DNA of 64,000 bases, taken from the NCBI GenBank assembly GCA_000953735.1, contig LN554852.1, forward strand, positions 2,057,846 through 2,121,845, read 5' to 3'. The position numbers were made by a program, and so were the translations under genes. Positions 17,830 through 29,948 of the stretch are shown piece by piece (the first letter of the stretch is position 1; every line of letters begins with the position of its first letter). A model generated the notes under the pieces. The model did no database searches and was not told the DNA's origin. It saw only the letters and a program-made list of their open reading frames with translations. This stretch comes from Moritella viscosa (GTDB lineage Bacteria > Pseudomonadota > Gammaproteobacteria > Enterobacterales > Moritellaceae).

Positions 17830-18465
17830 TACCCATTAGTGGCTTCTTAATTCCTAATTATCTCCAAGAGCTAACACACTTTGGGCTATAACGAGCTAGC
17901 TGTGATGGTGCACATACTATCTTTTTCATACATATTTCTTATATCAATCGGCAATTGAAAGCACTGAATAATTAACAATAAAATGTGCATATTAGCTGTC
18001 AGTTTTTGATTGTCTTGTACGTCTTATTAAACTTGATAGTCATCAACTTTAATAAGACGTATAGAACTATTTTTAACAGTTGATTTTAAAGTGTTTTATA
18101 TAAACTGACACCCTATACAATAGGAGAGAAGTGTTCCTTTGGATTAGTGGCGAAGCATTTTCATAACTCTGGCAATACCTTTAGTGCTTTGATAAAGATT
18201 AAAACTTATCTGGTTGATGGATTGAGTAAAACTTATATCCATACAATAAAGTGTGAAATTTTTATATTGCATAGGGAATTATATTTTTATCTACGAACAT
18301 AATGTTTAGTTAGAACGATGTAACATAGAATGAAATATTTTGAATGTATCGAAGTGAACTAGTCATAAAGAGGTGTTCTCTTGGTGTTCTTGAATTTATG
18401 TGATAACTTACGACTTTTTACTCTTATTTATTGTATTCATTGTAGTTTTATCTTCAAGGATGGTA
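17830..18465. other. Long upstream region of the cas operon
   Basis: About 640 AT-rich bases before cas1. It holds the cas1 promoter and one 20-bp inverted repeat (18018-18061). No CRISPR repeat-like word was found in it and no ORF is convincing. An in-frame start at 18400 would add a hydrophobic 22-residue stretch to Cas1 that the family lacks. Confidence 0.5.
18018..18061. repeat. 20-bp inverted repeat upstream of cas1
   Basis: TACGTCTTATTAAACTTGAT, a 4-base loop (AGTC), then its complement with one central mismatch. It lies about 400 bases before cas1. There is no T-run, so it is more likely a protein-binding site or structured RNA than a terminator. Confidence 0.55.
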
Positions 18466-19461
18466 ATGAAAGATCTATCTGTATCAGGTTTAAAAAGCAT
18501 TTTGCACTCCAAACGTGCAAATATGTTCTACCTCGAATATTGCCGAGTGATGCAAAAAGACGGCCGTGTTCTTTATCTCACAGAGGCGAAAAATGAGAAC
18601 CAATACTTCAATATCCCAATCGCCAATACCACAGTATTGCTATTAGGCAATGGGACCTCAATTACCCAAGCAGCCATGAGAATGTTAGCCCAAGCAGGCG
18701 TTTTAGTTGGCTTTAGTGGTGGCGGTGGAACTCCTCTATACATGGCGAATGATGCAGAGCAGCCTATAGAATGGTTTACTCCACAAAGTGAGTATCGCCC
18801 AACAGAGTATTTACAAGGTTGGATGTCATTTTGGTTCGATGACGAAAAGCGCTTGACAGCAGCAAAAGCATTTCAGAAAGCAAGATTAGATTTTTTACAG
18901 AAGATTTGGGCAAAAGACAGAGAGCTAAGGCAAGAAGGATTTAATTTAAAAGATACAGGCTTGCAAGAAGCGTTTGAGCGGTTTGAACAACGAACAGAAG
19001 CTGCAACAAAGCAGAGTGATTTATTACTGATAGAAGCGCAATTAACCAAACATTTGTATAAATTTGCTGCGAACAGTGTTCAGCTTCAAGATTTTAGAAG
19101 ACAGCATCAATCAACCGATAAAGCCAATGACTTTTTGAACCACGGTAACTATTTAGCGTATGGTTTAGCTGCAACAACACTATGGGTATTAGGTATTCCG
19201 CATGGCTTTGCAGTGATGCATGGAAAAACTCGACGTGGTGCGTTAGTTTTTGATGTGGCAGATCTAATAAAAGATACCATAGTGCTGCCGTGGGCATTTA
19301 TTTGTGCCAAAGAAAATGATACAGAGCAAGAGTTTCGTCAACAAGTTCTGCAAGCCTTTACCGACCATAAAGTGTTGGATTTTATGTTTGATACCGTGAA
19401 AGAAGTCGCCTTGGCGTTCCAACACTCTAAGTTTATAGATGGCGGAGATTGTGCAAGATGA
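18466..19461 (+). CDS. cas1: Cas1, type I-F adaptation integrase
   Basis: 331 residues from ATG 18466, which has AAGGA five bases upstream and gives the N-terminus MKDLSVSGLKSILHSKRANM, as in Cas1f. Hallmarks: LYLTEAKNENQYFNIPIANT, LLLGNGTSITQAAMRMLAQA, GVLVGFSGGGGTPLY, EYRPTEYLQGW, and the C-terminal HGFAVMHGKTRRGALVFDVA / DLIKD metal-binding region. Cas1 with Cas2-3 inserts new spacers at the leader end of the array. The stop overlaps the next start by four bases (ATGA), so translation is coupled to cas2-3. Confidence 0.95.
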   Translation: MKDLSVSGLKSILHSKRANMFYLEYCRVMQKDGRVLYLTEAKNENQYFNIPIANTTVLLLGNGTSITQAAMRMLAQAGVLVGFSGGGGTPLYMANDAEQPIEWFTPQSEYRPTEYLQGWMSFWFDDEKRLTAAKAFQKARLDFLQKIWAKDRELRQEGFNLKDTGLQEAFERFEQRTEAATKQSDLLLIEAQLTKHLYKFAANSVQLQDFRRQHQSTDKANDFLNHGNYLAYGLAATTLWVLGIPHGFAVMHGKTRRGALVFDVADLIKDTIVLPWAFICAKENDTEQEFRQQVLQAFTDHKVLDFMFDTVKEVALAFQHSKFIDGGDCAR

Positions 19462-22400
19462 TGGTCACTTTTGTTTCTCAGTGTGAGAAAAATGCGTTAA
19501 AGAAAACACGCAGGGTATTAGATGCCTTTGCCAATCGCATTGGTGATAATACATGGCAGAGTATCATTACTGAAGATGGATTATTAACTGTAAAAAAGAT
19601 GCTGCGCCAAACCGCCAGTAAAAGCACCGCGGTCAGTTGTCATTGGATACGCTCTCGTTCACGCAGTCAGTTTCTGTGGGTGGTGGGGAATCGTTTGAAG
19701 TTTAATACCGAGGGTATGGTGCCAGTTAATAGAACCAGTTTAAATCTTGATCATAAAGAATGGGAAAATGGTTGGGATAAGTTAGAAGTGATCGCGAATG
19801 CGACCAGTATTGCAGGCTTATTTCATGATTTTGGTAAAGCCAATGATTTATTTCAAGCAAAACTACAAGGCACAAGTGGTTCAAAAGGAGAACCTTATCG
19901 ACATGAGTGGATATCCTTACGCCTATTTGAAGCATTTGCTAAAGGTAAGTCAGACCAAGAGTGGTTATCTGAATTAAGTGACATAAATCGCTTAGGTAGT
20001 GGTAACCGTATTGAATCTTATGTATTAGACAACTTACATAATGATCACAGTTCAGGTTCATTATCACCATTTAAAACACTCGCACCTTTTGCCACGTTAA
20101 TCGCTTGGTTAATCGTGTCTCATCACCGTTTACCAGCCCCCCAAACCAAGCGTTCAAGAAATGTGAATAATGACCAGATGCCAGAATGGTTAACGAATGT
20201 TTTTAATTGTGATTGGAACTCTAGTAATGCAGAGCAATTAGATCAAATTGGCAGTGAGGTCATCAATAAAAATTGGGATTTCAGTCAAGGAACTCCGTTT
20301 ATTAGTAAAACATGGAAAAAACAAGCGTCTAAGTTGGCGTATCGAACGTTAAAAAACATAAAGTTAAATCATGGTCAAGAATGGTTAAAGCAACGTTTTG
20401 TTGCACACTTATCGCGTTTGTCACTCATGTTATCGGATCACTATTACTCTTCTTTAGAGGCTGAACAGTCACAATTGAAATGGCGAGATAGCAATTATTT
20501 GCCGAAAGCCAATACCGATAGAAAAGCGACTCAGCTTGAAGGACGAGCTGTATTTAAACAGCAATTAGATGAACACAATATTGGGGTATCACATAACGCG
20601 ATGCATTTTGCGTTAAACTTGCCCACATTGAAATATGCGCTACCTGCGATAGGGCAACATAAACTATTCAGTCGCAATGCACCGAAAAAATTCGCATGGC
20701 AAGATAAAGCTTATAAAGCAGCTAAAGAGTATGCTCGATTAAGTGAAAAACAGGGTTTTTTTGGAATAAATATGGCCTCAACAGGCTGTGGTAAAACTAT
20801 TGCTAATGCCCGAGTTATGTATGCTCTTGCTGATGAAAGAGAAGGGTGCCGCTTCTCTGTTGCGGTTGGCTTAAGAACGCTTACGTTACAAACTGGTGAC
20901 AGTTACCGTGATTTATTGAAATTAGGTGATGATGAACTTGCGGTATTAATTGGCTCACAGGCAGTTAAGACCCTACATCAAGTTAATAAAGAACCAAGTA
21001 AAGAAAAGCAAAGCTCAGGAAGCGAATCAAGCGACGATTTTTTCGAGCAATTATTCATTAGTTATGATGGTCAAATTTATGATGGACGCTTAAAACACTG
21101 GCTAAAAGGCAACCCTAAATTAGAGCAATTATTGAGTGCGCCTGTTGTAGTTAGCACCATTGATCATTTAATGCCTGCGACAGAAAGCTTGCGTGGTGGC
21201 AAACAAATTGCTCCAATGCTTCGCTTATTAACCTCAGATCTTATTTTGGATGAGCCTGATGATTTTGGTCTAGAAGATTTGCCTGCATTATGTCGCTTAG
21301 TCAATTGGGCTGGAATGCTAGGTTCCCGTGTATTGCTCTCTTCTGCAACTTTACCACCGTCATTAATCGCTGCGCTATACCATGCGTACCTAGAAGGACG
21401 GAAGCACTTTAATGAAGCTAACTTTCCAGAAGGGGAGTTGCAAAGTGTGGTTTGTGGATGGTTTGATGAAAATAAAAGTCACGTCACAGAGATAAAATCA
21501 TCTGACGCTTTTACGGAAGAAAACGATATATTTGTTCAGAAGCGTATTAACAAATTGAACGAAAATAAAAAAGTGTTGCGTAAAGGAAAATTAGTAACAG
21601 TCCACCTTGATGATGATTCAAGCGGAAAGAAAGATGATAATCATATTTATCAGTCAGTAGCGGCAACCGTTCATGGCCAGATCCATCAATTACACGACAG
21701 TCATCATGTAGAGCATAGCTCAGGACGAAAAGTATCTTGTGGCGTAGTGCGAATGGCGAATATAGACCCGATGATCAAGGTGATGAAGAGCCTGTCAGAA
21801 ATGAGTCCACAAGATGATTACAGTATTCATTTTTGCGTATATCACTCACAGTTCCCATTAGCGGTACGTTCTCATAAGGAGAATCGTTTAGATAATACGC
21901 TAACTCGATATGATCCAGAACAGCTTTGGCAACAACCAGAGATTATTGAAGCACTAAATAAAACAACGACGGCCAATAACATTTTTGTGGTGCTTGGTAC
22001 TTCTGTTGTCGAGGTTGGGCGAGATCATGATTACGATTGGGGAATTGCAGAGCCAAGTTCAATGCGCGCATTGATCCAATTAGCAGGACGTATTCAACGC
22101 CATCGCCAACAAGAGCCTTCCAGCAGTAATTTAATCGTATTAAATAAAAACATCAGAGCATTAAGACATGATTCTACGGCTTATTGTAAACCGGGGTTTG
22201 AAAGTAGAGCTTTGCCCTTATCCACTCATGATTTGAATGAACTATTAAATGGTGAGTTAGAAAGTATCTCTGCGATTTCACGGATTAAAGAGCCTTCATT
22301 TTCTCAGAAAGATTTTCATTTAGATAGAGTATCGAAAAAGAGAAAAGCTAAGGGAATTGACAGTTTTTCAGTACAAGAACATCGAGCGTTAAAGTTAACG

Positions 22401-22853
22401 TTAGGGCTAGACAATAAGCTAAATAAAGATATATTTTTTCAGAAAGATGATGAGGCTTGCCTGTGGTGGAGTGCTGATAATCATGCTGATTGGAATGGTG
22501 AATTTATCAATCAAACTCGGTTCAGAAAGTCAGACCCACAAGAAGAATTCATTTTGTGTAAAACCGATGAGTGGGGCGATTTAGGTTGGCATCAAAAAGA
22601 CACAACGCAAAAAAAATGGGTATTCACGCTACAAAATCACAGAATAGTGAAACAAAGCATTGAGTTATCAAAGGGCAATTACTGGTGGATAAGTACAGAT
22701 GCAGAAACCATTTATATCAATTTAGCTGAACAGCTAGAACAAACAGTAGAAAGCACTGGGCAATATTTTGGTGGTATTAGCTTAAGAGCAGCAAAAGAAG
22801 ACCAAGTGCTTATTTGGAGTTGGAATGATCAGATGGGTGTGTTCAATACATAA
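19458..22853 (+). CDS. cas3: Cas2-3 fusion (Cas3f), type I-F nuclease-helicase
   Basis: About 1131 residues. Start 19458 gives MMVTFVSQCEKNALKKTRR, the Cas2 domain N-terminus. Then the HD nuclease motif GLFHDFGKAND near 120, Walker A ASTGCGKT near 440, the DEAD-like box LILDEPDDFG near 597, motif III LLSSATL, and helicase motifs VEVGRDHDYDWGIAEPS and AGRIQRHRQ near 877. The fused Cas2 domain is diagnostic of I-F. It degrades DNA bound by the Csy complex and supports spacer acquisition. All motifs are intact. The stop codon sits in the loop of a perfect hairpin (22839-22868). Confidence 0.95.
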   Translation: MMVTFVSQCEKNALKKTRRVLDAFANRIGDNTWQSIITEDGLLTVKKMLRQTASKSTAVSCHWIRSRSRSQFLWVVGNRLKFNTEGMVPVNRTSLNLDHKEWENGWDKLEVIANATSIAGLFHDFGKANDLFQAKLQGTSGSKGEPYRHEWISLRLFEAFAKGKSDQEWLSELSDINRLGSGNRIESYVLDNLHNDHSSGSLSPFKTLAPFATLIAWLIVSHHRLPAPQTKRSRNVNNDQMPEWLTNVFNCDWNSSNAEQLDQIGSEVINKNWDFSQGTPFISKTWKKQASKLAYRTLKNIKLNHGQEWLKQRFVAHLSRLSLMLSDHYYSSLEAEQSQLKWRDSNYLPKANTDRKATQLEGRAVFKQQLDEHNIGVSHNAMHFALNLPTLKYALPAIGQHKLFSRNAPKKFAWQDKAYKAAKEYARLSEKQGFFGINMASTGCGKTIANARVMYALADEREGCRFSVAVGLRTLTLQTGDSYRDLLKLGDDELAVLIGSQAVKTLHQVNKEPSKEKQSSGSESSDDFFEQLFISYDGQIYDGRLKHWLKGNPKLEQLLSAPVVVSTIDHLMPATESLRGGKQIAPMLRLLTSDLILDEPDDFGLEDLPALCRLVNWAGMLGSRVLLSSATLPPSLIAALYHAYLEGRKHFNEANFPEGELQSVVCGWFDENKSHVTEIKSSDAFTEENDIFVQKRINKLNENKKVLRKGKLVTVHLDDDSSGKKDDNHIYQSVAATVHGQIHQLHDSHHVEHSSGRKVSCGVVRMANIDPMIKVMKSLSEMSPQDDYSIHFCVYHSQFPLAVRSHKENRLDNTLTRYDPEQLWQQPEIIEALNKTTTANNIFVVLGTSVVEVGRDHDYDWGIAEPSSMRALIQLAGRIQRHRQQEPSSSNLIVLNKNIRALRHDSTAYCKPGFESRALPLSTHDLNELLNGELESISAISRIKEPSFSQKDFHLDRVSKKRKAKGIDSFSVQEHRALKLTLGLDNKLNKDIFFQKDDEACLWWSADNHADWNGEFINQTRFRKSDPQEEFILCKTDEWGDLGWHQKDTTQKKWVFTLQNHRIVKQSIELSKGNYWWISTDAETIYINLAEQLEQTVESTGQYFGGISLRAAKEDQVLIWSWNDQMGVFNT

Positions 22854-22868
22854 AAATGTATTGAACAC
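22839..22868. terminator. Hairpin overlapping the cas2-3 stop codon
   Basis: A 13-bp perfect inverted repeat (GTGTTCAATACAT and complement) with a 4-base A-rich loop containing part of the TAA stop. It separates cas2-3 from the csy genes and also lies just past the 3' end of the minus-strand CreR-like RNA, so it may end transcription from both directions. There is no T-run. Confidence 0.5.
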
Positions 22869-22978
22869 GCTACCTGTACGGTAGTTAAAGAATTAAGAAT
22901 AAAATTTATTTCTAAGCTACCTACTATCGGTAGTCAGTGAATTTTAATGAATTGTGATGGTGATGTCACGTTTAAATA
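22862..22978 (-). ncRNA. Candidate crRNA-like regulatory RNA (CreR/CreA type)
   Basis: On the minus strand, a degenerate first repeat (22942-22909) keeps TTCACTG at its start and the exact handle CTTAGAAA at its end; its stem has changed to CTACC/GGTAG. A 19-nt pseudo-spacer (22908-22890) follows, then a second repeat (22889-22862) with stem CTACC/GGTAG and the unchanged loop GTACA. True repeats have CTGCC/GGCAG, so both stems changed in a compensating way. A perfect -10 TATAAT lies at 22990-22985 on the same strand, giving a start near 22978. Such RNAs, processed by Cas6 and loaded in the effector, repress cas promoters by partial matching. No expression data are available; the boundaries are inferred. 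Confidence 0.8.
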
Positions 22979-22988
22979 CAATTAATTA

Positions 22989-23006
22989 TATTAATAATAA
23001 CATTTA
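22989..23006 (-). promoter_or_regulatory. Predicted Csy-complex operator upstream of csy1
   Basis: On the minus strand a CC PAM (23008-23007) is followed by a site matching the pseudo-spacer at positions 1-5, 7-11 and 13-17, with mismatches at 6, 12 and 18. The mismatching positions are those flipped out of the guide in type I-F complexes. Complementarity stops after 18, so binding without full R-loop and without Cas3 cutting is expected. The site lies 73 bases before the csy1 ATG over an AT-rich stretch that contains possible -10 boxes for csy1 (22987-22992) and for the minus-strand RNA. Confidence 0.75.
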
Positions 23007-23078
23007 GGTTGATCATTTGTTTTGTCGATGGCAAACTTAAATCAATTGATACATAAGCGATGTTTAAAGGTTGATGGA

Positions 23079-24425
23079 ATGACACTATTAAATACCATTG
23101 CTGATTATATTCAGCAACGACAAGATGTAAAGTTAGAACCATTACAAAAGGCATTAAATAAGGTCTTAGACAAGAGTGACGACCCTATTGCAATAGCAGA
23201 GGCGCAAGCTATTTATGCTGATGAGTCAGCACCGGTAAAGGCATCATTTGTTATTGGAGTTTGGCTTTCTGATGCAGCAAAACGAGCAAAGCAGATAAGT
23301 CTAGCTACCCATGCTGCAAAATTTACTCACAGTGATGCTAAAGCCAGCAGTATGTTGGTGAGTGAGCAATCAACTCAAACAAGCTATTTGGTGACGTCAT
23401 CCTTAAATAAAAAAACCATTGATGCAGTCGGTAATGCAGCTGCTTTAGATGTAGCAAGATTACTCAAGTTAGAGTGTGATGGTGAAAGTTTAACTACTCA
23501 ATTACAGCAAGGACACATTAATGCATTACGATCTTTTGCTAAAGATGAGCAGCAGCTACAAGAGTGGAAAGCGGGTTTTGAACAAGCATTGGGAGATACA
23601 AAGTTATCTAGCCATACATTAAGTAAGCAGCTGTACTTTCCCTTAATTGGCAAAGAAAAAACATCGGTTGAATATCATTTGTTATGCCCTCTATTTTCAT
23701 CATCACTCGCGCATGAGCTATATCATGAAGTAAGACGAACTCGGTATGGCGATTCAAAAGAGATCCGTGATGCAAGAAAAGCAGATAAATACCATGAAAA
23801 GTTAGATGAACGTTTTCTTAATATTGCCGTGCAGAATTTTGGTGGTTCGAAACCTCAGAACATCTCGCAATTAAATAATGAACGTCATGGTCAAACCTTT
23901 TTATTAAATTGTGCCCCACCACAATGGAAACGAGTCACATCAACACCTGCCAACAGTGTAACTTTTTTTGGCCGAGAATTAAGTTTTAAGACTGCCTCAT
24001 TGACCCGTGAGTTTCGGTTATTTCTTGAAAATCTAACTGAAGATGATAGGAATGTAAGTACTCGCCGTCAGAGAGAGAATGCGTATCTTTTGCCAATCAT
24101 CGATACGGTATTAAACCATGCAGCAGTCATTCAAATGATGACAGAATATGCAGGTTGGTCAAACAGTGATGAATGCAAAATGAAGTCCAATCATACACTG
24201 TGGCTAGATGTTTACAATACAGATGAAACATTCCAAAAGAGCCGTGAAAAAAGTGATTGGCTAACCCCCATTACTAACGATTTTGCTAATTGGTTAACGC
24301 ATAAATTAAAGAGTCGTAAAGAGAAATATGTTTTGGGTGATATTGAACACGCTTATTTTTCAAAGCTGTTTTTACATCAACTAAAGCACTTTGAACGCTC
24401 TACACCAAAGCTAGGGGAGCTATAA
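23079..24425 (+). CDS. csy1: Csy1 (Cas8f), large subunit of the type I-F complex
   Basis: About 448 residues from ATG 23079 (AAAGG eight bases upstream); an in-frame ATG at 23022 would add 19 unlikely residues. Csy1-type blocks: NNERHGQTFLLNCAPPQWKR, then FFGRELSFKT and VLGDIEHAYFSKLFLHQL near the C-terminus. With Csy2 it binds the 5' handle and reads the CC PAM. It starts after a 225-base gap from cas2-3, which holds the candidate autoregulatory RNA and target site. csy2 follows one base after the stop. Confidence 0.9.
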   Translation: MTLLNTIADYIQQRQDVKLEPLQKALNKVLDKSDDPIAIAEAQAIYADESAPVKASFVIGVWLSDAAKRAKQISLATHAAKFTHSDAKASSMLVSEQSTQTSYLVTSSLNKKTIDAVGNAAALDVARLLKLECDGESLTTQLQQGHINALRSFAKDEQQLQEWKAGFEQALGDTKLSSHTLSKQLYFPLIGKEKTSVEYHLLCPLFSSSLAHELYHEVRRTRYGDSKEIRDARKADKYHEKLDERFLNIAVQNFGGSKPQNISQLNNERHGQTFLLNCAPPQWKRVTSTPANSVTFFGRELSFKTASLTREFRLFLENLTEDDRNVSTRRQRENAYLLPIIDTVLNHAAVIQMMTEYAGWSNSDECKMKSNHTLWLDVYNTDETFQKSREKSDWLTPITNDFANWLTHKLKSRKEKYVLGDIEHAYFSKLFLHQLKHFERSTPKLGEL

Positions 24426-24426
24426 C

Positions 24427-25395
24427 ATGAGCCGATATTTATTGTTGAAAAACGTTAGTGTACAGAACGCCAATGCGATTGCTGGCTTAACTTATGGTTT
24501 CCCTGCCATGACTAACTTTTTGGGGTTTGCTCACGCGATCTCACGTAAATTACCTTCTGAATTAACTGTCACGTTAGGTGGCGTTGCGGTTATCAGCCAT
24601 GAAAATATTATACATGCAAGACAGCCTAAAGAGTGGGGGGATTATGTATTTGCGTTAACTCGTAACCCATTAACTCAAAAAGGAACAACGGCCCCAATTA
24701 ATGAAGAAGGTCGTATGAACATGACCATTTCTCTATTAATCGAAGTGCATGGTTTATTGGGTGGTGCAATAGAACAGGAAAACTCATTAGTTAATAGTGT
24801 GAAATATCTTATTCCTAGATTAAGAATTGCGGGTGGGCAAATTACTCAAATTGGGTCTATATCGCTCACTAACAAAGATGATGATAAAAAAGTATTACGT
24901 CGTTTAATGCCTGGGTTTGTTTTATTAGATCGCAGTGAGTATTTAACTGAACACGTTAAAAATAAACAAGGCGAACAATTGTCAGTATTTGATGCTTGGT
25001 GTGATTTTTACAAATTAAAATACCAAGCGACTCGTGAAGATAGTGATGCAGAAGATCAAGACGAACTAAGTAATAAAGCCAAGTGGGAGTTTGTGAAGAA
25101 ACCTCAAATGGGTTACTTGGTGCCAATCATGTCAGGTTTTTGTGCAATCTCGCCACTTTATGAAGCTGGCAAAGTTGAAAAGGTACGTGATACCACAGTT
25201 CCTGTTGCTTTTGCAGAGGCGGCTTATGGTATTGGTGAATGGATGAGTCCGCACCGTTTAACAAACATAGATGATGCAATTTGGCGCTATGAGCATTGTG
25301 AACCTTGGTATGTCGCCAAAACAAAACCGTTTATAGACCCTATCATTGAGTTTTCTGTGGACGAGCTTGATGAAAGTGCCGAAATGAAATTTTAA
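24427..25395 (+). CDS. csy2: Csy2 (Cas5f), type I-F complex subunit
   Basis: 322 residues, the usual Csy2 size. N-terminal YLLLKNVSVQNANAIAGLTY and GFPAMTNFLGFAHAISRKL are the RAMP-like start of the family. It forms a heterodimer with Csy1 at the 5' handle of the crRNA. The start lies one base after the csy1 stop within the same operon. Confidence 0.93.
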   Translation: MSRYLLLKNVSVQNANAIAGLTYGFPAMTNFLGFAHAISRKLPSELTVTLGGVAVISHENIIHARQPKEWGDYVFALTRNPLTQKGTTAPINEEGRMNMTISLLIEVHGLLGGAIEQENSLVNSVKYLIPRLRIAGGQITQIGSISLTNKDDDKKVLRRLMPGFVLLDRSEYLTEHVKNKQGEQLSVFDAWCDFYKLKYQATREDSDAEDQDELSNKAKWEFVKKPQMGYLVPIMSGFCAISPLYEAGKVEKVRDTTVPVAFAEAAYGIGEWMSPHRLTNIDDAIWRYEHCEPWYVAKTKPFIDPIIEFSVDELDESAEMKF

Positions 25396-25419
25396 AAATT
25401 AATAACAGAGAGAATTAAA

Positions 25420-26403
25420 ATGGCTAAAACAAACTTAAAAACACCATCAGTATTAGCGTTTGAAGCAAAACTACTTCCATCAGATGCATTAATGTTTGCA
25501 GGTAACTGGCAGCAGCAAGAGTGGACACCAATTATTGTGGGTGAAAAAGCGGTGCGTGGAACGATCTCAAATCGTCTAAAAGCTGCAATGGCAAATGATC
25601 CAACAAAATTAGATGCTGAAGTATCTAAAGCAAACTTACAAACGGTTGATATTGCAGCGTTAGATCATCAATCTGACACATTGAAAGTGCAATTTACCCT
25701 GCGTGTATTAAGTGGATTACAGGTGCCATCAACCTGTAATAACCCTGAATATCAGGCAGCATTAGCTAAAAAAATTGAAGCTTACCAACAAGAAGAAGGC
25801 TTTACTGAATTAGCAAAGTGTTATGCTCAAAATATTGCTAATGGTCGTTTTTTATGGCGTAACCGTGTTGGAGCTGAGAATGTATTGGTAAAAGTATCCG
25901 CAGAAGGAAAAGAGTTTACCTTTAATAGTCATGATTTTAATTTACGTAGCTTTGATAATAATCCATCAGTTGACGAGCTAGCAGCGATTATTCAAAAGGG
26001 ATTAGTTGAAAATCATGCGTTAATTAAAGTTGAAGCCTTCACGCAGTTAGGTGAGGGCCAAGCTGTCTATCCGTCGCAAGAGTTGGTCATGGGTGGCGGT
26101 AAAGGTGACAAGAGTAAATTCTTGTATCAGCTAAATGGACAAGCGGCAATGCATTCACAAAAGATTGGTAATGCATTACGTACCATTGATACTTGGCATC
26201 CTGCATTTGAAGAAGTGGGACCTATTGCGGTTGAACCTTATGGTTCTGTAACTAATCGTGGTGCTGCGTATCGACAACCAAAAGAGAATAATGATTTTTA
26301 TAAGTTGTTAGATGGTTGGATGTTAAAAGATAAACAACCAGAGAAAGAGCAACAGCATTACATTATGGCGATGCTTATTCGTGGTGGCGTATTTGGTGAG
26401 TAG
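25420..26403 (+). CDS. csy3: Csy3 (Cas7f), backbone subunit of the type I-F complex
   Basis: 327 residues. Conserved stretches include [18 protein letters not shown] at the N-terminus, [20 protein letters not shown] centrally, and the C-terminal half with [20 protein letters not shown] and [20 protein letters not shown]. Six copies coat the crRNA and flip out every sixth base, which explains the mismatch spacing in the predicted autoregulatory site. Good ribosome site (AGAGAGAATTAAA) before ATG 25420. Confidence 0.95.
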
Positions 26404-26411
26404 AGGTTGTC

Positions 26412-26963
26412 ATGAAATTTTACTGTGATATTAAAGTACTACCAGATCCAGAAGCGTCAGAACCCGTGCTTATTAGCAATTTGATGGCGAAATTACATCG
26501 AGCTTTAGTCGCGTTAAAAGAAGTCAACATTGGTGTTAGTTTTCCTAATGTGAATAAAACATTAGGGGATACTCTACGTTTACATGGTGATGAAGCTGAT
26601 TTAAATAAGTTGTTTGAATTAAATTGGCTTAAAGGTTTACGTGATTATTGTACTCAAACATACATTTCATTGGTGCCAGAGAGTTGCCAGTATTGTAGTG
26701 TAAAGCGTAAACAAGCTAAAAGTGCTAACAACAAACGTAAACGCTCTATCGCTAAAGGTTGGTTAAATGCTGAAGAGGCAGCATTAAAAATTGGCAATGA
26801 GCAGCAAAAAATACTGCGCTTACCGTTTGTTCAATTAAAAAGTACATCTACAGGGCAGGTGATGAAGTTATTCATTGAGCATAGCGTATTGCAAGATGAA
26901 GCAGTTGAAGGGACGTTTAATAGCTATGGGTTAAGCTCATCGGCAACAGTTCCTTGGTTTTAA
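26412..26963 (+). CDS. cas6f: Csy4 (Cas6f), crRNA-processing endoribonuclease
   Basis: 183 residues. H29 sits in KLHRAL, exactly where the catalytic histidine of Csy4 lies. An arginine/lysine-rich helix (VKRKQAKSANNKRKRSIAKG) binds the repeat hairpin, and the C-terminus GTFNSYGLSSSATVPWF is typical. It cuts at the 3' side of the 5-bp CTGCC/GGCAG stem to leave an 8-nt CTTAGAAA handle. The predicted CreR-like RNA keeps a 5-bp stem of altered sequence, so its processing by this enzyme is a testable point. Last gene of the operon, followed by the array leader. Confidence 0.95.
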   Translation: MKFYCDIKVLPDPEASEPVLISNLMAKLHRALVALKEVNIGVSFPNVNKTLGDTLRLHGDEADLNKLFELNWLKGLRDYCTQTYISLVPESCQYCSVKRKQAKSANNKRKRSIAKGWLNAEEAALKIGNEQQKILRLPFVQLKSTSTGQVMKLFIEHSVLQDEAVEGTFNSYGLSSSATVPWF

Positions 26964-27100: not shown

Positions 27101-29948
27101 GTTCACTGCCGTACAGGCAGCTTAGAAATTTTCAAGTCGATGATAAAACAAGATTTAAAGGTTCACTGCCGTACAGGCAGCTTAGAAACCATTGCAACTA
27201 AAAAATGGAAGTTTAAATTTGTTCACTGCCGTACAGGCAGCTTAGAAAGCCAACGCTGGCGGCGAAAATGAAAGAGTACAGTTCACTGCCGTACAGGCAG
27301 CTTAGAAATTAAGGGTTTTAATCCATGAGTTAAGGCGAGCGTTCACTGCCGTACAGGCAGCTTAGAAATGAGCAAGTACGCAACGTTTGACGAGTGGATC
27401 GTTCACTGCCGTACAGGCAGCTTAGAAAACGAAATGTGGGCTAGCCAGGAGGAGAAATAGGTTCACTGCCGTACAGGCAGCTTAGAAAAGAGCCTGTATC
27501 ACCAGTACCGGAACCAGTACGTTCACTGCCGTACAGGCAGCTTAGAAATAAATTAATTGCTGCATTATTTGTAGCTGTTGGTTCACTGCCGTACAGGCAG
27601 CTTAGAAAAGCTGAAATTGACAAAGTTGAGTTATTGATTGGTTCACTGCCGTACAGGCAGCTTAGAAACATGGTTAATGTCTTAATGACAACGGTTTTAA
27701 GTTCACTGCCGTACAGGCAGCTTAGAAAAGAAGCCGCTTAGGTCGCAGGCTACGAGGTGGGTTCACTGCCGTACAGGCAGCTTAGAAAAGCAGCAAATGC
27801 TGAAAATGATGAAAACATAAGTTCACTGCCGTACAGGCAGCTTAGAAAATAATCAAAATGGTCATACACTTCCTTTAGTAGTTCACTGCCGTACAGGCAG
27901 CTTAGAAAAACGGCCACGCATGTACTCAGGGAAACTATCGGTTCACTGCCGTACAGGCAGCTTAGAAACCAGACCTGACTTTTTGAGTATATGATTTTGG
28001 GTTCACTGCCGTACAGGCAGCTTAGAAAAATCAAAAATGACAACGCAACAACAGAAGCAAGTTCACTGCCGTACAGGCAGCTTAGAAAAGATGAAACTGA
28101 TTTGATAATCAAAATATCTTGTTCACTGCCGTACAGGCAGCTTAGAAAAAGACGAAAAGATTGCACGGCTTTGCAGTAAAGTTCACTGCCGTACAGGCAG
28201 CTTAGAAACTCCGAAATTGGCACGCTAGTAAGAACTGGAAGTTCACTGCCGTACAGGCAGCTTAGAAATCGTTAATCGGGGCTTTTTTTGGATGTTTTTT
28301 GTTCACTGCCGTACAGGCAGCTTAGAAAAAGTGCAGAAACAGTAACAACACCTGCTGTAAGTTCACTGCCGTACAGGCAGCTTAGAAAAAGACAAGGCCG
28401 AGTATCAAAAAAAACAAGAGGTTCACTGCCGTACAGGCAGCTTAGAAATAACTTTGACGGGTTGTGAGCACCCATTGGTTGTTCACTGCCGTACAGGCAG
28501 CTTAGAAAGAAAAAAAGCCCCGAAAACGAGGCAATTAATGTTCACTGCCGTACAGGCAGCTTAGAAATCCAAAAATCATAGAACGTGCTTTAACAAGCGG
28601 TTCACTGCCGTACAGGCAGCTTAGAAATAGAGGGTGTTAGGTCGTCGTCTTTATCTTGGGTTCACTGCCGTACAGGCAGCTTAGAAAGCCCTGCGCCTCT
28701 GCAGTAGCAATTAAATTATGTTCACTGCCGTACAGGCAGCTTAGAAAAAGGCACAGGTAATGCAAAGAACTTATTTCAAGTTCACTGCCGTACAGGCAGC
28801 TTAGAAAACCGCTTGCACCATACACCGATAGCGTTACGCGTTCACTGCTGTACAGGCAGCTTAGAAAATGGCGTCTTGCGTAAATAGCTGCTGTCATAAG
28901 TTCACTGCCGTACAGGCAGCTTAGAAAAGATTGAGACTCTTCTTTAATAGAAACTGTTTTGTTCACTGCCGTACAGGCAGCTTAGAAAAAATATGTGTGC
29001 ATTGTAATTATGTAAAAGATGTTCACTGCCGTACAGGCAGCTTAGAAAACAAGAGCTAATCGAGTTACTTACTAAGACTGGTTCACTGCCGTACAGGCAG
29101 CTTAGAAAACCGCGAATCGTGGTCAATAGCTCTTTTGCTTGTTCACTGCCGTACAGGCAGCTTAGAAAACCGCAGCCCGGTTTCGTCCTCTGCGTTCATT
29201 GTTCACTGCCGTACAGGCAGCTTAGAAATGATGGTACGGTTCTAAACGGCAATGGTGTTTGTTCACTGCCGTACAGGCAGCTTAGAAAATTGGTGCAGAT
29301 TTAGGAAGTGTCCAGATCGCGTTCACTGCCGTACAGGCAGCTTAGAAACAGGAGAACGCCATAATAAAATAGATATTACTGTTCACTGCCGTACAGGCAG
29401 CTTAGAAACAAGGGCCATTCGGCTTAGCCCATGTGATATGGTTCACTGCCGTACAGGCAGCTTAGAAATCTGTATGTGCAAGGTTCTATAAAACATACAT
29501 GTTCACTGCCGTACAGGCAGCTTAGAAAGAACAAGTCGAAAAGATTGTAGATTTTAGTACGTTCACTGCCGTACAGGCAGCTTAGAAATTGATTCAACTA
29601 AACATTCGCTATGGCTTGGTGTTCACTGCCGTACAGGCAGCTTAGAAAAAGACCCGCATCACGATAAATTTTAACTAGAGGTTCACTGCCGTACAGGCAG
29701 CTTAGAAAATGATATTCGATTCGATAAAACCAGAAAGTTAGTTCACTGCCGTACAGGCAGCTTAGAAAAAGGTTATAGACGTGTAATTACGTGTGCGCCA
29801 GTTCACTGCCGTACAGGCAGCTTAGAAAAAATGTAGCAAGTTAAATCTATTGATTCATTCGTTCACTGCCGTACAGGCAGCTTAGAAATGATGGCGTTGC
29901 GTGTGTGTAATCATCAACAAGTTCACTGCCGAATAGGCAGCTTAGTAA
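27101..29948 (+). CRISPR. Type I-F CRISPR array, 48 repeats, 47 spacers
   Basis: 28-base repeats beginning GTTCACTGCCGTACAGGCAG and ending CTTAGAAA, with a 5-bp stem CTGCC/GGCAG and loop GTACA. Spacers are 32 bases except one of 31 (28509-28539) and one of 33 (28928-28960). One internal repeat (from 28840) has CTGCTG instead of CTGCCG. The final repeat (29921-29948) has several changes (GAATA, TTAGTAA), marking the leader-distal end. I counted repeats at 60-base steps from 27101 to 28481 (24), 28540 to 28900 (7) and 28961 to 29921 (17). Spacers were not identified; two contain terminator-like sequence. Confidence 0.97.

What the first reader, a model, noticed from the sequence alone, without database searches (positions are those of the whole stretch)
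22862..23008. Candidate self-targeting CreR-like RNA controlling the type I-F csy operon
Between cas2-3 and csy1 the minus strand holds two degenerate CRISPR repeats around a 19-nt pseudo-spacer. Seen directly: the exact 8-nt handle CTTAGAAA; compensated stems CTACC/GGTAG in both repeats; the exact loop GTACA in the second. The pseudo-spacer matches a CC-flanked site upstream of csy1 at positions 1-5, 7-11 and 13-17, with mismatches exactly at 6, 12 and 18. Chance agreement with the Csy3 flipped-base period, the correct PAM and the correct location is very unlikely. A perfect TATAAT lies before the RNA. Known: crRNA-like RNAs (CreR/CreA) that make Cascade repress cas or toxin promoters. Inference: this one represses csy1-4 (and perhaps itself) when Csy complex is in excess of ordinary crRNA, so anti-CRISPRs or loss of the array would induce it.
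Basis: partly seen in the sequence, partly recalled or inferred. Interest (0 to 1): 0.95.

Follow-up and report, generated by a model that had tools for sequence, protein, structure and literature searches.

The report
CRISPR guide RNA repressing its own operon
Between two genes of a bacterial type I-F CRISPR immune system sits a tiny, worn-down CRISPR unit whose guide RNA very probably leads the CRISPR complex to switch down the promoter of its own genes; this kind of self-control is already known, and this is a clear, well-preserved example of it.

Summary
On the minus strand between cas2-3 and csy1 lie two degenerate I-F repeats around a 19-nt pseudo-spacer. It matches a CC-flanked site upstream of csy1 at positions 1-5, 7-11 and 13-17, the only exact match in the 5.09-Mb genome. 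An Aliivibrio MAG has the same element; between the two, guide and target differ only at positions 6 and 12. Of 103 csy1 loci screened, 32 carry a comparable element (24 guide clusters), with mismatches concentrated at positions 6, 12 and 18, the bases flipped out in type I-F complexes. Best reading: a CreR, a Csy-bound crRNA-like RNA that represses csy1-4.

The perfect TATAAT is probably not its promoter; GTGACA-17-TAAAAT fits better. The target's PAM abuts the predicted csy1 -35 box and lies 20 bp outside the RNA's own promoter, so self-repression is not supported.

CreR/CreA RNAs and type I-F mini-arrays are published, so this is a new member of a known kind; the six-base drift and promoter register are useful additions. 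Transcription, processing and repression were not testable here.

The parts
22909..22942 (-). pseudo-repeat 1 (psiR1): ATTCACTGA, stem CTACC/GGTAG with 7-nt loop (hairpin 22917-22933), 5' handle CTTAGAAA (22909-22916)
   Evidence: hairpin -6.3 kcal/mol; conserved in L020 with C-to-T giving a G-U pair
22890..22908 (-). pseudo-spacer (psiS), 19 nt, TAAATTTTATTCTTAATTC
22866..22889 (-). pseudo-repeat 2 (psiR2): TTTAA + hairpin CTACC-GTACA-GGTAG (22870-22884) + CGTG
   Evidence: (-6.6 kcal/mol)
22941..22969 (-). predicted creR promoter GTGACA-17-TAAAAT; -10 ends 7 nt before the first hairpin arm, so the RNA should start almost at the hairpin
   Evidence: 10/12; register shared by other loci; L020 has GTGACA-17-TAAGAT
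22990..23008 (-). target: PAM CC (23007-23008) + protospacer TAAATGTTATTATTAAT; 15/15 at non-flipped positions
23009..23037 (+). predicted csy1 promoter: -35 TTGATC (23009-23014) abutting the PAM, 17 nt, TG-extended -10 CAAACT (23032-23037)
   Evidence: register across 13 loci; both hexamers unchanged in L020
23079..24425 (+). csy1 (cas8f); start at ATG 23079 rather than TTG 23022, by N-terminal match to relatives
   Evidence: PF09611, 5.5e-112
24427..26963 (+). csy2 (24427-25395), csy3 (25420-26403), csy4/cas6f (26412-26963)
18400..22853 (+). cas1 (18400-19461) and cas2-3 (19449-22853)
   Evidence: Cas2 and Cas3 C-terminal models over their cut-offs; DEAD, ResIII and HD matches below theirs
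27101..29948 (+). CRISPR array, 48 repeats GTTCACTGCCGTACAGGCAGCTTAGAAA (46 exact, one with 1 mismatch, the last with 3)
22839..22868 (.). 13-bp inverted repeat over the cas2-3 stop and the 3' end of creR; candidate 3'-end stabiliser or terminator for both convergent transcripts (no U-run; the terminator scan found none)
   Evidence: -17.4 kcal/mol, z -7.7; stem kept, loop changed in L020

Best explanation
It is a creR gene for the type I-F system. Inferred steps: a short minus-strand RNA starts near 22934. Csy4 cuts after each GGTAG stem, giving a crRNA-like guide (CUUAGAAA handle, short guide, 3' hairpin). With only 24 nt between handle and 3' stem, instead of 37 in this array, it should form a smaller Csy complex. 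Shown by sequence: the guide can pair with the target at the 15 non-flipped positions out of 17 next to a CC PAM, and that PAM abuts the predicted csy1 -35 box. Inferred: the bound complex covers the -35 region and blocks RNA polymerase, lowering csy1-4. The R-loop is too short to trigger Cas2/3, so the chromosome is not cut. When ordinary crRNAs or anti-CRISPRs take up Csy proteins, repression eases and the operon is refilled.
For: Anatomy. A unique exact target in the genome and chance controls. cas1, cas2-3 and csy1-4 present as open frames with family matches and a 48-repeat array. In L020 the paired guide and target positions are unchanged while guide position 6 and target positions 6 and 12 differ. 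Close relatives without the element have csy1 overlapping or within about 12 nt of the upstream frame, taken to be cas2-3 (L019, L037, L039), so the element comes with its own csy1 promoter. 32 of 103 csy1 loci have a comparable element; with one per guide cluster (n=24), mismatches are 18 at position 6, 18 at 12, 14 at 18, against 1 in total at 1-5 and 5 in total at 7-11 (17 in total at 13-17); 0 of 20,000 permutations reach the 6+12 count. The same finder passes 33 of 68 candidates in real regions, 1 of 37 in reversed regions and 0 of 17 inside csy1; with no PAM required, a best site is CC-flanked in 31 of 39 (background 3.2%). PAM abutting -35: mean promoter score 6.85 against 5.06 +/- 0.37, 0 of 3000 shuffles, 13 loci. 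Precedents: an Acinetobacter I-F CreA in the same gene gap represses although its bases 6, 11 and 18 are unpaired (PMC10097628, sections read); short R-loops keep I-F1 interference off (PMC7296934, passages).
Against: No transcript, processing or binding data. psiR1's 7-nt loop may weaken Csy4 cleavage. The whole RNA is predicted to fold with the two repeats paired to each other rather than as two hairpins, and its fold is not clearly better than shuffles (z -1.3). The csy1 -10 (CAAACT) is weak (3 of 6), and simple scanning prefers other + strand hexamers. The PAM/-35 register fails or shifts in some of the 13 loci (L068 and L082 have no TTG there, L011 and L100 are shifted by 2), and in 5 of the 13 the PAM lies 125-285 nt from csy1 rather than 64-75. 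71 of 103 csy1 loci are not counted as having such an element (one of them, L095, does have one that the finder missed). Only one close relative shares this one.
Confidence: 0.9

Rival explanations
1. It is a CreA antitoxin guide of a CreTA module: the target controls a small toxin RNA between the target and csy1, as in Acinetobacter I-F loci.
For: Same place (cas3-csy1 gap), same orientation, similar guide length and mismatch pattern as the Acinetobacter creTA (PMC10097628).
Against: Only 71 bp separate the PAM from the csy1 start, filled by the predicted promoter and a leader of about 35 nt. The small frames there are not conserved with L020 (ATGTTTAAAGGTTGA against ATGTTCTAA; the other frame is shifted by a 2-nt indel).
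Confidence: 0.05
2. A decayed leftover of a CRISPR array, with a chance match to the csy1 upstream region.
For: Repeats are degenerate and the region is AT-rich; with 2 mismatches allowed the genome shows no excess of sites over the control.
Against: The exact match was never reached in 20,000 shuffles and is unique in the genome; paired positions are conserved while positions 6 and 12 drift; the design recurs in 24 guide clusters.
Confidence: 0.02
3. The complex binds upstream of -35 and activates csy1, or only blocks other transcripts across the site, instead of repressing csy1.
For: The target lies upstream of the predicted -35 rather than across -10 or the start site.
Against: PAM-side Csy1/Csy2 should reach into the adjacent -35 duplex (structural knowledge, recalled); known CreA/CreR guides repress (passages).
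Confidence: 0.03

Closest known systems
CreR (cas-regulating RNA; Liu et al. 2023, Cell Host Microbe, not held; known here through passages of reviews PMC12737573 and PMC13131331)
   Same: crRNA-like RNA inside the cas locus, guide partly complementary to a PAM-flanked site at the cas promoter, no toxin partner. One review calls it widespread in type I and V-A.
   Different: The other review's passage names I-B, I-E and V-A for CreR autorepression; this one is I-F, with a 19-nt guide and six-base mismatch phase.
Standalone-repeat mini-arrays (Shmakov et al. 2023, NAR gkad495; not held; only its citation was seen; content recalled: mini-arrays matching cas8 promoters in many type I systems, one I-F1 example tested)
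   Same: Two repeat-like sequences, partial guide, cas8 promoter target; as recalled, I-F1 included.
   Different: I could not check whether this locus, the drift at positions 6/12/18 or the promoter register were reported there.
CreTA of Acinetobacter I-F (PMC10097628; abstract, outline, two sections and passages seen)
   Same: cas3-csy1 gap, divergent guide, CC PAM, 20-nt guide with mismatches reported at 6, 11 and 18.
   Different: Controls a toxin RNA, with the target downstream of the toxin transcript's start; here no toxin gene is visible, and the target abuts the predicted csy1 -35.
RacrIF1, a phage RNA anti-CRISPR (PMC10651486; passages seen)
   Same: I-F repeat-like RNA bound and processed by Cas6f.
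   Different: Phage-encoded solitary repeat that inhibits the system; no guide aimed at a cas promoter.

Membership tests
CreR | two CRISPR-like repeats around a spacer-like guide, in the cas locus | tested here: met
CreR | guide partly complementary to a PAM-flanked site at a cas promoter | tested here: met
   the promoter itself is predicted, not mapped
CreR | not coupled to a toxin gene | tested here: met
   71 bp from PAM to csy1, no conserved mini-ORF against one relative; a very small RNA toxin cannot be fully excluded
CreR | RNA made, processed by Cas6 and bound by the effector | not testable with these tools
   needs small-RNA sequencing and pull-down
CreR | represses cas genes; relieved by crRNA or anti-CRISPR | not testable with these tools
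   needs reporters
CreA (CreTA) | target controls an adjacent toxin gene | tested here: not met
   little room and no conserved ORF between target and csy1
ordinary CRISPR array | near-identical repeats with 32-nt spacers | tested here: not met
   psiR1/psiR2 differ from the repeat and from each other; 24 nt between handle and next stem instead of 37

The most novel reading that the evidence does not exclude
Type I-F CreR loci follow one design rule: the -10 box ends 7-8 nt before the first hairpin so the RNA has almost no leader; the guide length is set in steps near six nucleotides, mostly shorter than the 37-nt spacing of this array (fewer Csy3 subunits), so it binds but cannot fire Cas2/3; bases 6, 12 and 18 drift freely; and, in the divergent group, the target PAM sits against the -35 box of the promoter it controls. 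New guide/target pairs keep arising under this rule while their letters change completely.
Probability: 0.55. Interest if true: 0.55.

Novelty: new member of a known kind. Interest (0 to 1): 0.42.

Why it matters
It gives a clean, testable case of a type I-F CRISPR system measuring its own free effector complex. The loci around it show in natural sequence what structures say: every sixth guide base is not read. That pattern is a sensitive way to find such regulatory guides, which have little sequence conservation.

Tried and rejected
CreTA reading: rejected (little room, no conserved ORF). Phage copies of the guide: 7 viral stretches hold CTTAGAAATAAATNTTATT (two pairs look identical); judged by eye on the printed 40 nt before the handle, 0 of 7 has a repeat-like hairpin, so probably chance. 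Plasmids: no match to 22700-24425 in distant mode. Phages: two records of one Acinetobacter phage with a csy1 of 30.5% identity, not followed. Rfam: the only CRISPR match is CRISPR-DR4 over psiR1, below threshold (17.7 against 35 bits, E 0.71); two unrelated matches there were also below threshold. Whole-RNA folding: not informative. Guide-length steps: gaps of 20, 24-26, 30-31, 35-36 and 41-42 nt in 24 clusters look quantised near six but do not align perfectly with 37; not tested formally, and the arrays of the other loci were not measured.

Rows dropped or set by hand: duplicate loci and non-csy1 loci before the 103-locus screen; the csy1 position of L016, L017, L108 and L109 was set by hand because the automatic one was wrong; a few loci (for example L053, L091, L128) have less than 800 nt upstream. 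One further csy1 place (G467:C19), with the same score as another in that genome, was not fetched. The promoter-register test used 13 of the 32 loci: 15 have guide and target both on the minus strand, of which L020 and L104 were dropped as near-relatives; the other 17 (15 with both on the csy1 strand, and L063 and L111 with mixed strands) were left out. The -10 test used 25 of 32 after dropping seven near-relatives. L095 has a clear element but handle CTTAGAAG; the finder missed it and it is not counted in the 32. Guide clusters were made by a similarity cut-off (13 of 17), which also merges L047 with L116.

Full report
What is there. The window holds a type I-F locus on the + strand: cas1 (18400-19461), cas2-3 (19449-22853), csy1 (23079-24425), csy2, csy3 and csy4, each an open frame with a Pfam match over its cut-off (within cas2-3 the Cas2 and Cas3 C-terminal models pass, the DEAD, ResIII and HD matches stay below theirs), and an array of 48 repeats from 27101 to 29948. 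The csy1 start is taken as ATG 23079 because its N-terminus matches relatives. In the 225 bp between cas2-3 and csy1 the minus strand carries psiR1, a 19-nt guide and psiR2, and further up a CC-flanked site that the guide matches at 15 of 15 non-flipped positions.

Chance. In 20,000 dinucleotide shuffles of the intergenic region no CC-flanked site reached 15/15 (one reached 14). In the whole 5.09-Mb genome the pattern occurs once exactly, at the target. The five other sites found with up to 2 mismatches all have 2, and one of them is the guide itself; the total of 6 equals the backwards-pattern control. In the window alone, allowing 3 mismatches gives no excess over shuffles. So the strength lies in the exact match.

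Closest relatives. A scan of genome contigs with Csy1 gave two loci: L020 (uncultured Aliivibrio MAG, 83% in Csy1) and L019 (Aliivibrio sp. S3MY1, 75%). L020 has the same element: the guide differs only at position 6 over its 19 nt (T/C), and the 17-nt target only at 6 (G/A) and 12 (A/T). A C-to-T change in the psiR1 stem keeps a G-U pair. L019 and two further close relatives from the family search (L037 at 85%, L039 at 84%) lack the gap: csy1 overlaps, or starts within about 12 nt of, the upstream frame, which I take to be cas2-3. Of the ten other genomes of the window's genus that were sampled, one has a csy1 match, at 31%.

Survey. csy1 was found in 45 of 329 genomes of the family of G260, which I take to be Vibrionaceae because G260 holds the L020 contig (same length), and in 60 of 394 genomes drawn from the order (PF09611). 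After removing duplicates, 103 csy1 loci including the window were screened from 800 nt upstream of csy1 (less where the contig ended) to 60 nt inside it, by anatomy only: 5-bp hairpin, a handle at least 6/8 like CTTAGAAA, and a second hairpin. Of 68 candidates, in 52 loci, 32 (in 32 loci) have a CC-flanked match that at most 3 of 100 shuffled guides reach; these fall into 24 guide clusters. Controls: in a rerun 33 of 68 passed, against 1 of 37 in reversed regions and 0 of 17 inside csy1. When no PAM is required, a best site is CC-flanked in 31 of 39 candidates with at least 13/17 matches, against a background of 3.2%. An earlier guide-target search over 67 of these loci, blind to the handle, gave 19 hits, 15 of them with a handle-like sequence just before the guide.

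Mismatch phase. With one guide per cluster (n=24), mismatches by position are 0,1,0,0,0 at 1-5; 18 at 6; 0,1,0,3,1 at 7-11; 18 at 12; 1,4,4,4,4 at 13-17; 14 at 18, with 15 each at 19 and 20. A rate of 18/24 is what free drift over four letters gives. Permuting mismatches within loci over positions 1-17 never reached the count at 6+12 (0 of 20,000). Position 18 is less telling, because matching has faded there anyway. The pattern fits the 5+1 pairing of type I-F complexes (PMC7305327, passages) and an Acinetobacter I-F CreA whose bases 6, 11 and 18 are naturally unpaired while it represses (PMC10097628, section read). That paper gives 11, not 12, as the second unpaired base, and reports that disrupting pair 12 has no effect, so it agrees only in part.

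Promoters. The best minus-strand promoter next to psiR1 is GTGACA-17-TAAAAT, with its -10 ending 7 nt before the first stem. In 25 loci (near-relatives removed) the -10 consensus match peaks at 7-8 nt before the stem (means 2.92 and 3.08 against 1.48-2.56 at other distances), and by my reading of the printed hexamers 20 of 25 have TAnnnT there. The RNA should therefore begin at or just before the hairpin. On the csy1 side, in the 13 loci with guide and target both on the minus strand, a -35/-10 pair scores best exactly at the PAM edge (6.85 against 4.08-5.69 at other offsets; 0 of 3000 shuffles). Eight of the 13 begin with TTG directly after the PAM's GG and one with TTT; two have TTGA two bases later; L068 and L082 do not fit. 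In 8 of the 13 the PAM is 64-75 nt from the csy1 start; in the other 5 it is 125-285 nt away, so the controlled transcript may differ there. In the window the promoter is TTGATC-17-CAAACT with a TG before the -10; both hexamers are unchanged in L020. The csy1 -10 is weak, so this rests on the comparison, not on the single sequence.

Mechanism. Shown by sequence: guide, target, PAM, hairpins, register, conservation. Inferred: transcription, Csy4 cutting, loading, binding, repression. The stems keep the array stem except for one swapped pair, and the 3' arm keeps AG at its end, which Csy4 is recalled to read. The guide region is 24 nt from handle to stem instead of 37, and the match ends at 17. 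Type I-F1 interference stays off with R-loops shorter than 32 bp (PMC7296934, passages), which would explain why the chromosome survives. Competition by crRNA and anti-CRISPR is how a review describes CreR (PMC12737573, passages). Self-repression of creR is not supported, since the target ends at 22990 and the creR -35 begins at 22969.

Known or new. CreR and mini-arrays at cas promoters are published. Liu 2023 and Shmakov 2023 are not held, so what they say about I-F beyond the review passages is recalled; I recall an I-F1 mini-array tested experimentally in Shmakov 2023. The listings of my paper searches show no title or abstract opening about the position-6/12/18 drift across I-F CreR loci or the PAM/-35 register, but I read no listed paper through, and the two key papers are outside the library, so no claim of priority is made. 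Verdict: real, with the marks of a working element in the comparisons made, and a new member of a known kind.

Noticed in passing
window 22954-22969: An inverted repeat GTGATG-N4-TGTCAC (perfect GTGACA-N4-TGTCAC in L020) lies between the two promoters; its second half is the predicted creR -35. Possibly a protein operator. Half-site spacing does not fit the usual CRP site (recalled).
   Followed up: no
L117:1002-1322 and L008:1038-1400: In two loci of a genus with the mini-array on the csy1 strand (g43), a small protein gene (106 aa from its ATG) with only weak, unconvincing Pfam and PADLOC matches lies between the guide's target and csy1; it could be a CRISPR-controlled cargo gene.
   Followed up: partly
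L121 (about 690-750 nt upstream of csy1): Two consecutive repeat-guide units upstream of csy1 rather than one; neither passes the target screen.
   Followed up: no
L063 and L111: Guides whose best target lies on the strand opposite to the guide's own strand, with 15/17 and 14/17 matches.
   Followed up: no
window 22839-22868: Strong 13-bp hairpin spanning the cas2-3 stop codon and the end of psiR2; loop changed but stem kept in L020.
   Followed up: partly
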